From Candidatus Pelagibacter sp. HIMB1321 (GTDB lineage Bacteria; Pseudomonadota; Alphaproteobacteria; Pelagibacterales; Pelagibacteraceae): a stretch of 64,000 bases of DNA. Below the pieces are notes generated by a model, which was not told where the DNA came from, ran no database searches, and saw only the letters and a list, made by a program, of their open reading frames with translations. Of the stretch, positions 57,566 through 59,601 are shown in pieces. The DNA is taken from the NCBI RefSeq assembly GCF_900177485.1, contig NZ_LT840186.1, positions 868,001 to 932,000 of the forward strand, written 5' to 3'. The translations under genes were made by a program, and so were the position numbers. Position 1 is the first letter of the stretch; every line of letters begins with the position of its first letter.

Positions 57566-57676
57566 TTATAGTAAAAATGTTGCCATTAATACTAAAACTA
57601 AAACTACAACAATTGTTCCCCACAAGACAAATTTTGTAAAATTGTTCCAGGTATTTTTATGGTTTTCATTATTCAT
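57566..57676 (-). CDS. Small aa3-type cytochrome c oxidase subunit IV-like protein
   Basis: A 36-residue peptide, MNNENHKNTWNNFTKFVLWG followed by a single hydrophobic helix (about 17-36). A short polar N-terminus with an aromatic W-x-x-F-x-K-F motif and one helix is the layout of the bacterial aa3 oxidase subunit IV family (PF07835), which in alphaproteobacteria is often found next to pntA. It starts 5 bases after rpmJ and ends 14 bases before pntA1. The assignment depends on layout and context because the chain is so short. Confidence 0.72.
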   Translation of the reverse strand: MNNENHKNTWNNFTKFVLWGTIVVVLVLVLMATFLL

Positions 57677-57680
57677 AAAA

Positions 57681-57806
57681 CTACTTCTGTCTTGCTTTAA
57701 ATTTTGGGTTAGTTTTGTTTATAATGTAAACTCTCCCTCTTCGTCTTACAAGTTTTGAGTTTAGATCTCTTTTTTTTATCGACTTTAATGAGCTTTTAAT
57801 TTTCAT
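57681..57806 (-). CDS. rpmJ: Ribosomal protein bL36
   Basis: A 41-residue basic protein: [20 protein letters not shown], then [21 protein letters not shown]. The V-R-R-x-G-R-V-Y-I-I-N-K core and length match the alphaproteobacterial bL36. The zinc-binding Cys/His residues of the C+ form are absent, as in other alphaproteobacteria. It lies between the epimerase stop (57809) and the small oxidase-like gene. Confidence 0.92.
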
Positions 57807-57808
57807 AA

Positions 57809-58690
57809 TTAATGGGAGTTAATAAAGGAACTTATATAATCTTTCAATTGTATTTTTCCAAATTTTTGAATAATTCTGTTATTATGTGAGATTTTAGTTA
57901 ATGCTGAAGCATATCTTTCACCAGATCTAGCTTTTAAATAGGTAATTTTACTATTGAACATTTTTGCAACCTGTATGATCGAATATGATTTATTGTTGCT
58001 AATACTATAATATTTACATTTGTTAGCTTTAAAGGCAGTATAACAAATTTTAATAGTATCTTGAATATGTGTGAATCTTCTACCTTGTGTTCCAGGTCTT
58101 ACTATACTTAAGGGCTTTTTATTTAAATATTGATTTTCAAAAATTCCAATTACCGTTGCCATATCACCAACTCTGATCTGTCTTGGCCCATAAACATTAT
58201 AAAAGAAAATAACTTCAAATTTAAAGTTAAACCATTTTTTTAAGTTATCTAACAATTCTAAATTTTTTGATTTTGTAAAAGCATAGGGAGATAAGTTTTT
58301 ATCATTGCCTTTGTTACCTAAAGATGCTGATGTTGCTGAATAGATTAGTTTAATTTTGTTATCTAGGCAGAATTTAAATACAGCTTTAGATCCAATTGAA
58401 TTAGATTGATAGCATTCATCAAATTTTCCAAAACTTTGATAAATTCTTGCAAATTCTCCAAAATGAAAAAGTGATTTAATTCTTTTTCTGTATTTACTTA
58501 AAAGGTTATTAATGTCAGATGTATTTCCCTTTAAATACTTTACTCTGCTATTGTTAATATGGTTTTTTCTGGTACCAGACGAATAGTTGTCTAAACTTAA
58601 AATTTTATATTTTGTTTTTTTAATTAAAAATTCAATAAGATTTGATCCAACAAAACCTGCACCACCAGTTATAACAATGAGATTTTTCAT
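57809..58690 (-). CDS. NAD-dependent nucleotide-sugar epimerase/dehydratase (extended SDR)
   Basis: Starts [21 protein letters not shown], the NAD-binding GxxGxxG. The catalytic set is Ser in [10 protein letters not shown] and YAFTK (Tyr-x3-Lys). [19 protein letters not shown] and [11 protein letters not shown] follow, as in GalE-like epimerases. The nucleotide sugar cannot be told from sequence. Its ATG lies 7 bases after the 3' end of the 5S rRNA gene on the same strand, so it may be expressed from the 5S promoter. It marks the edge of the glycan region. Confidence 0.9.
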
Positions 58691-58697
58691 TTGTAAA

Positions 58698-58815
58698 TGC
58701 CTGGCAATGTCCTACTCTTCCGTGCCTTAAGACAAAGTACCATTGGCGCTGAAAGGCTTAACTGCCGAGTTCGGAATGGGATCGGGTGTTACACTTTCGC
58801 AATAATCACCAGGCA
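58698..58815 (-). rRNA. rrf: 5S ribosomal RNA, isolated from 16S-23S
   Basis: Minus-strand sequence starts TGCCTGGTGATTATTGCG and ends ATTGCCAGGCA; the ends pair to form helix I. Conserved internal blocks CCGATCCCATTCCGAACTCG and GCGCCAATGGTA are present, and the 118-base length is right. No 16S, 23S or tRNA gene lies within 4 kb on either side, so it is detached from the main rRNA operon. Confidence 0.97.
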
Positions 58816-58819
58816 GTGT

Positions 58820-58847
58820 TTTATACCCAAACTTTTAAATTAGTCAA
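58820..58847 (-). promoter_or_regulatory. Candidate dedicated promoter for 5S rRNA
   Basis: On the minus strand TTGACT (58842-58847), a 16-base spacer and TATAAA (58820-58825) end 4 bases before the mature 5S 5' end at 58815. Transcription would begin within a few bases of the mature end. Confidence 0.7.
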
Positions 58848-58878: not shown

Positions 58879-59601
58879 TTATTTTTTAATTGAATAGATA
58901 AAAATTGCTTTAAAAGCTATAAATGCATCTTTTAAGCCTATCTTTTTTCCCTCGTTATATGACCGACCATTATAAGTTATTGGTACTTCAAAAAATTTAA
59001 ATTTTTTCTTAGCTAATTTTATTGTTATCTCGGGCTCAAATGAAAATGATTTTTCTTTTAATTCAACATTTTTTAAGCAGGAGTTTTTAAATAATTTATA
59101 ACCAGTCTCCACATCAGTTAAATTTAAATTAGTAAACATATTACAAACAAAAGTAATAATTTTATTAGCTAAGTAATGCCAAAAAAAATGTATTCTGACA
59201 TATTTTCCACCACCAATGAACCTCGAGCCATAAACAATATCAGCATCAGCCTCAAAAAAAGGTCTTAGCAGCTTTTCATAGTCGGATGGATCATACTCTA
59301 AATCAGCATCTTGAATAATTAAAATATCCCCAGTTATATTTTTAATTCCTGTTTGTACAGCCGCACCCTTACCCAAATTTTCTTTATGAGAAAAAACTTT
59401 AATATTTTCTGCAAAATTAGTTTGCTCTAAAATTTCTGACGTACCATCATTTGAACAATCATCGATAATTATAATTTCATAATCATTAAAGTCAAATTGA
59501 TCTAGGTTATAGATTACTTTCTTTATAATTTTTTTAATTGTATTTATTTCATTATAACAAGGTATAATAATTGATAATTTAATTTCATTTTTTTTTAGCA
59601 T
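58879..59601 (-). CDS. Glycosyltransferase family 2 (DPM1/polyprenyl-phosphate sugar type)
   Basis: A GT-A fold: LSIIIPCYNEINTI, IIIDDCSNDGTSEIL, GKGAAVQTGIKN, and the DxD region IIQDADLEYDP, followed by VYGSRFIGGG and VETGYKLFK. This pattern resembles dolichol-/polyprenyl-phosphate mannose or glucose synthases. There is no C-terminal membrane helix pair. The donor is unknown. It overlaps the stop of the upstream membrane protein by one base. Confidence 0.9.
   Translation of the reverse strand: MLKKNEIKLSIIIPCYNEINTIKKIIKKVIYNLDQFDFNDYEIIIIDDCSNDGTSEILEQTNFAENIKVFSHKENLGKGAAVQTGIKNITGDILIIQDADLEYDPSDYEKLLRPFFEADADIVYGSRFIGGGKYVRIHFFWHYLANKIITFVCNMFTNLNLTDVETGYKLFKNSCLKNVELKEKSFSFEPEITIKLAKKKFKFFEVPITYNGRSYNEGKKIGLKDAFIAFKAIFIYSIKK

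What the first reader, a model, noticed from the sequence alone, without database searches (positions are those of the whole stretch)
58690..58847. Detached 5S rRNA with its own promoter, running straight into an epimerase gene
The 5S gene has a near-consensus promoter ending 4 bases before the mature 5' end, and its 3' end is 7 bases before the epimerase ATG on the same strand. There is no room for a terminator or Shine-Dalgarno. Either the epimerase message is released by 5S processing as an almost leaderless mRNA, or the epimerase has another start. Coupling a surface-sugar enzyme to 5S output would be unusual.
Basis: partly seen in the sequence, partly recalled or inferred. Interest (0 to 1): 0.6.

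Follow-up and report, generated by a model that had tools for sequence, protein, structure and literature searches.

The report
5S–L36 operon captured by sugar-epimerase cassette
In SAR11 ocean bacteria the lone 5S ribosomal RNA gene is always followed at once by a protein gene – normally ribosomal protein L36, but in this genome and many relatives a surface-sugar enzyme has slipped in between, so it is very probably made from the 5S transcript while L36 appears to get a new promoter hidden in the enzyme gene's tail.

Summary
The window is SAR11 (Pelagibacter); its sole 5S lies 46 kb from the sole 23S, across the known hypervariable island HVR2. The 5S has a conserved promoter, and a nucleotide-sugar epimerase starts 8 nt after the Rfam 5S end.

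The usual gene after 5S is rpmJ (ribosomal protein L36; single copy here), 7–29 nt away with no terminator. In 39 loci, and in 75 of the 80 closest named relatives, the epimerase sits between 5S and rpmJ (linker mostly 6–13 nt).

Where inserted, the epimerase's last codons carry a DNA-conserved TTGAAA-N17-TATTAA element, absent from homologues upstream of 5S. Where a gap exists, it holds a TTTACA-N15-TATAAT-like sequence. Both mostly end 9–12 nt before rpmJ. I read them as a replacement rpmJ promoter.

Best reading: 5S is the first cistron of a protein operon. The cassette took rpmJ's place behind 5S and gave rpmJ its own promoter. Release as a near-leaderless mRNA is inferred; the missing Shine-Dalgarno is ordinary here. 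No transcript data were available. The split 5S is known; the 5S–rpmJ unit and cassette were not found described.

The parts
58820..58847 (-). 5S promoter: -35 TTGACT (58842-58847), 16-nt spacer, -10 TATAAA (58820-58825)
   Evidence: Sequence; same type conserved across 129 SAR11 loci, TTTACA/TTGACT-16/17-TATAAA/G mostly ending 6-7 nt before 5S
58699..58813 (-). 5S rRNA (Rfam span; E. coli-like mature ends would be about 58815 and 58697/58698)
   Evidence: RF00001 92.2 bits; only copy in genome
58691..58698 (-). 8-nt 5S-epimerase linker ATTTACAA; no terminator, no Shine-Dalgarno; inferred processing zone
   Evidence: homologous linkers 6-13 nt in the genus, 2% G, 0 of 39 with a Shine-Dalgarno
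57809..58690 (-). NAD-dependent nucleotide-sugar epimerase/dehydratase (SDR), 293 aa, inserted between 5S and rpmJ
   Evidence: PF01370 2.7e-26; Met1, Y136xxxK140 invariant; below all NCBIfam equivalog cut-offs
57819..57847 (-). DNA-conserved element in the epimerase tail, TTGAAA-N17-TATTAA: proposed promoter of rpmJ, -10 ending 12 nt before its ATG
   Evidence: Highest synonymous conservation of the gene, only when the epimerase is downstream of 5S; present in 37 of 42 insert loci and 71 of 80 named loci; unique in genome at up to 3 mismatches
57681..57806 (-). rpmJ, ribosomal protein L36 (type B), only copy in genome; usual neighbour of 5S
   Evidence: PF00444 7.6e-17, NF002021 above cut-off; single copy; next to 5S in 86 loci without the insert
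57566..57676 (-). 36-aa aa3-type cytochrome oxidase subunit IV-like ORF; its first 19 codons coincide with Rfam RF01810 'pntA sRNA' (57619-57680)
   Evidence: PF07835 9.6e-10; coding signature pN/pS 0.20 under RF01810
56464..57552 (-). pntA (transhydrogenase alpha), conserved gene after rpmJ; beyond the island edge
   Evidence: ORF list; conserved position in nearly all loci

Best explanation
In SAR11 the detached 5S gene is the first cistron of a small protein operon whose usual (probably ancestral) second cistron is rpmJ (L36). A surface-sugar epimerase from the edge of HVR2 has been inserted between 5S and rpmJ in this genome and many relatives. The 5S promoter now transcribes 5S and reads straight into the epimerase. 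5S folding and end-processing in the A+U-rich 6-13 nt linker (RNase E-type, inferred) leaves a near-leaderless epimerase mRNA, translated without a Shine-Dalgarno. Cut off from the 5S promoter by about 0.9 kb, rpmJ has acquired its own promoter, mostly embedded in the last codons of the epimerase (TTGAAA-N17-TATTAA), starting an rpmJ mRNA a few nt before its ATG. Shown: the architecture, its conservation and the DNA-level constraint. Inferred: co-transcription, processing, and promoter function.
For: In 129 SAR11 5S loci rpmJ follows at 7-29 nt in 86 and the epimerase in 39 (6-13 nt in the genus; 25, 26 and 38 nt in other genera); four have other inserts or spacing. 75 of the 80 best named relatives show the epimerase directly behind 5S. 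No terminator fits in the linkers. Promoter-like score inside 5S plus linker is 7.4, against 10.5 upstream of 5S. The epimerase tail element has synonymous identity 0.88 against a gene mean of 0.60, and 0.58 in homologues lying upstream of 5S; rare codons are near-fixed (Leu TTG 37/42 where TTG is 11% of Leu; Ser TCG in 32 of 42 where TCG is 4% of Ser). Inserts followed by a gap carry TTTACA-N15-TATAAT-like sequences at a similar distance (L013, L030, L072, L092; by eye also L206, L212). An unrelated alphaproteobacterium, G378, has 23S-5S-75 nt-rpmJ then a perfect intrinsic terminator.
Against: No transcript data were accessible. HVR2 genes lie 65 nt upstream of 5S on the same strand, so island read-through could also supply the epimerase. 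The -10 of the tail element (TATTAA) is only a fair match, and an RNA-level or recombination role is not excluded. The RNase E step has no direct evidence; a fold of the junction is not more stable than shuffles. The insert/no-insert state changes many times on a pntA tree, so counts are not independent events, and which state is ancestral was not tested formally.
Confidence: 0.68

Rival explanations
1. The epimerase is the last gene of the HVR2 operon: transcription from island promoters reads through 5S, and the 5S promoter contributes little to it.
For: HVR2 genes (glycosyltransferase 58879-59601) are on the same strand and end 65 nt before 5S. In 17 loci a homologous epimerase lies upstream of 5S, at the island end.
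Against: A conserved promoter lies between the island and 5S. It does not explain why the position directly behind 5S is kept with a 6-13 nt linker.
Confidence: 0.2
2. The epimerase has its own promoter in 5S or the linker and its apparent linkage is a coincidence of a compact genome.
For: SAR11 intergenic gaps are short in general (own knowledge).
Against: Best promoter-like score inside 5S plus linker is below the upstream one in 128 of 129 loci. A -10 for a start at the ATG would fall in the near-invariant G+C-rich CCAGGC.
Confidence: 0.06
3. The conserved tail element is not a promoter but an RNA element (for example a processing site) or a recombination site that marks the cassette end; rpmJ is then fed by read-through from 5S.
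For: The -10 match is imperfect; a DNA-level block at a cassette edge also suits recombination; rpmJ is 2 nt from or overlaps the epimerase.
Against: Loci with a real gap have good TTTACA-N15-TATAAT-like promoters at a similar distance to rpmJ. The element is unique in the genome, which argues against a general recombination site.
Confidence: 0.25

Closest known systems
Split rRNA operon and HVR2 of SAR11 (PMC2217521, PMC3815206, PMC11898729)
   Same: Sole 5S separated from 16S-23S by a surface-polysaccharide island of about 46-48 kb.
   Different: Those papers, in the passages read, treat 5S as the island's edge; none describes rpmJ directly behind 5S, the insert between them, or the tail element.
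Meyer et al. 2009 note on the 'pntA element' (PMC2704228)
   Same: Lists rpmJ before pntA in HTCC1062 and says the gene annotated 5' of the element is most often 5S or 'rmlB' (evidently the epimerase).
   Different: Does not describe 5S-rpmJ as a unit, nor that rpmJ lies between 'rmlB' and the element; treats the ORF start as a structured RNA.
rRNA operons with distal genes (tRNAs in E. coli, own knowledge; 5S-rpmJ-terminator in alphaproteobacterium G378)
   Same: Stable RNA and a downstream gene apparently in one transcript before the terminator.
   Different: Here 5S is alone, with its own promoter, and the gene behind it is variable.

Membership tests
SAR11 split rRNA operon with HVR2 | Single 5S and single 23S far apart, island between | tested here: met
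   5S at G000:926699-926813, 23S at 973057-975809, both single and on (-)
Bacterial ribosomal protein L36 (rpmJ) | PF00444 / NF002021 above curated cut-off | tested here: met
   61.6 vs 26.1 bits; 76.2 vs 70 bits
NAD-dependent epimerase/dehydratase (extended SDR) | PF01370 above cut-off, N-terminal glycine motif, YxxxK | tested here: met
   92.9 vs 20.9 bits; TGGAGFVGS and Y136-K140 conserved
ADP-heptose 6-epimerase, GalE, RmlB | NCBIfam equivalog cut-off | tested here: not met
   86.7 vs 274.6, 62.7 vs 262.3, 60.5 vs 365.1 bits: substrate unknown
Leaderless / near-leaderless mRNA | mRNA 5' end within about 5 nt of the AUG | not testable with these tools
   Only the 6-8 nt linker is seen; 5' ends unmapped
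rRNA transcription unit with a distal protein gene | No promoter or terminator between the rRNA and the gene | tested here: met
   Sequence evidence only: linkers 6-29 nt in nearly all loci, no rival promoter inside 5S
rRNA transcription unit with a distal protein gene | One transcript spans rRNA and gene | not testable with these tools
   No RNA data accessible
Sigma-70-type promoter for rpmJ in the epimerase tail | -35/-10 hexamers at 15-19 nt and a mapped start | tested here: inconclusive
   Hexamer geometry and DNA-level constraint found; start not mapped

The most novel reading that the evidence does not exclude
SAR11 uses the 5S transcription unit as an expression slot for one protein at a time: ribosomal protein L36 by default, or a surface-sugar enzyme that takes the slot and hands L36 a replacement promoter encoded in its own tail, so that cell-surface synthesis is tied to ribosome output.
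Probability: 0.22. Interest if true: 0.7.

Novelty: new variant of a known kind. Interest (0 to 1): 0.5.

Why it matters
SAR11 are among the most abundant cells in the ocean, with few regulators. If right, their 5S rRNA and a ribosomal protein come from one dicistronic unit across the family, and a variable surface gene has repeatedly occupied that unit, a direct link between a stable-RNA promoter and the surface island. It suggests that the island's functional edge is rpmJ rather than 5S, and offers a natural experiment: insert, no insert and upstream copy exist in close relatives.

Tried and rejected
An alternative epimerase start: rejected, Met1 invariant. A promoter inside 5S: not supported. 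Missing Shine-Dalgarno as an anomaly: rejected, typical here. A special RNA structure at the junction: no signal, z = 0.27. Terminators between 5S and pntA: 6 weak hits in 127 loci. My own first argument, that rpmJ 2 nt behind the epimerase proves a single transcript from 5S to pntA, was dropped when the tail element appeared. 5S-L36 linkage as a general alphaproteobacterial trait: rejected; no 5S near L36 in the other families whose L36 flanks were scanned, G378 excepted.

Full report
WHAT IS THERE. The window lies in a 1.32-Mb SAR11 genome. The only 5S (58699-58813, minus strand) is 46 kb from the only 23S, across the surface-polysaccharide island HVR2. That split is known (PMC2217521, PMC3815206). 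A promoter TTGACT-16-TATAAA ends 6 nt before the Rfam 5S start. An epimerase ATG lies 8 nt after its end, and the epimerase stop is 2 nt from an unremarked 41-aa ORF that is rpmJ, ribosomal protein L36, the only copy in the genome. Then come a 36-aa cytochrome-oxidase-IV-like ORF and pntA.

COMPARISON. I collected 129 SAR11 5S loci from several genera. 5S is followed directly by rpmJ (7-29 nt) in 86, and by the epimerase and then rpmJ in 39. Three more have the epimerase further down behind another insert or a longer linker, and L040 has an unrelated epimerase-like gene there. The 5S-epimerase linker is 6-13 nt within the genus and 25-38 nt in other genera. The epimerase-rpmJ gap is 2-8 nt or a 4-nt overlap in most. 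In 17 loci, most of them without any insert behind 5S, a homologous epimerase lies upstream of 5S instead. A named set from another collection, which overlaps the first, gave 75 of 80 with the insert. One protein tree holds both placements. On a pntA tree the state changes many times, so the slot is dynamic. G017 is HTCC1062: its coordinates reproduce the rpmJ-pntA gap 564786-564910 listed in PMC2704228.

TRANSCRIPTION LOGIC. The upstream promoter is conserved. Nothing inside 5S competes with it, and the linkers have no room for a terminator or promoter. Where rpmJ follows 5S it can hardly have another source than the 5S promoter or read-through from further upstream. Where the epimerase intervenes, two kinds of evidence point to a new rpmJ promoter. 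First, the last codons of the epimerase are conserved at DNA level only in insert genomes: TATGGAAAAATAAATTTGAAAGATTAYRTAAsTTCGTTTATTAA, the highest synonymous conservation of the gene (0.88 against 0.60; 0.58 in upstream homologues), with rare codons near-fixed. Second, when there is a real gap before rpmJ it contains TTTACA-N15-TATAAT-like sequences at a similar distance (L013, L030, L072, L092 scored; L206, L212 by eye). The epimerase itself has only the 5S promoter or island read-through.

TRANSLATION. Linkers are A+U-rich, 2% G and free of Shine-Dalgarno motifs (0 of 39; 1 of 86 for rpmJ), but window genes rarely have one either (8 of 56). Release of a near-leaderless mRNA by 5S end-processing fits but is inferred.

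WIDER CONTEXT. Among about 30 other alphaproteobacterial families sampled at their L36 loci, only G378 links 5S and rpmJ: 23S-5S-75 nt-rpmJ followed by a perfect hairpin-T5 terminator; its second 5S-rpmJ copy is identical over the stretch compared. The SAR11 unit may be the severed tail of such an operon, or convergent; this was not tested.

NOVELTY AND LIMITS. Literature searches found the split 5S and a passing note that the gene 5' of the 'pntA element' is 5S or 'rmlB' (PMC2704228), but no description of the 5S-rpmJ unit, the insert, or the tail element. The library is open-access only. No RNA data could be examined.

Noticed in passing
57566-57680 (-), RF01810: Rfam family RF01810 'pntA sRNA' appears to be protein-coding: it coincides with the start and first 19 codons of a 36-aa COX4_pro_2 ORF, pN/pS 0.20 in frame over 95 loci, 84% of pairs kept with few compensatory changes.
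   Followed up: partly
L076/L077/L217 (G378): An alphaproteobacterium with two 5S copies, each followed by rpmJ at 75 nt; the copy examined has 23S upstream and a perfect intrinsic terminator after rpmJ.
   Followed up: partly
L182 and L183 (contig CACLIZ010000016.1): The same 5S-epimerase-rpmJ stretch occurs twice in inverted orientation on one single-cell contig, probably an amplification chimera.
   Followed up: no
L040: An unrelated epimerase-like gene (28% identity) occupies the same 5S-rpmJ slot, with a TATAAT 9 nt before rpmJ.
   Followed up: partly
L029, L049, L051, L062, L065, L066: Some lineages change the terminal 5S helix from CCTGG/CCAGG to GCCGG/CCGGC, a paired change at the 5S ends.
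   Followed up: no
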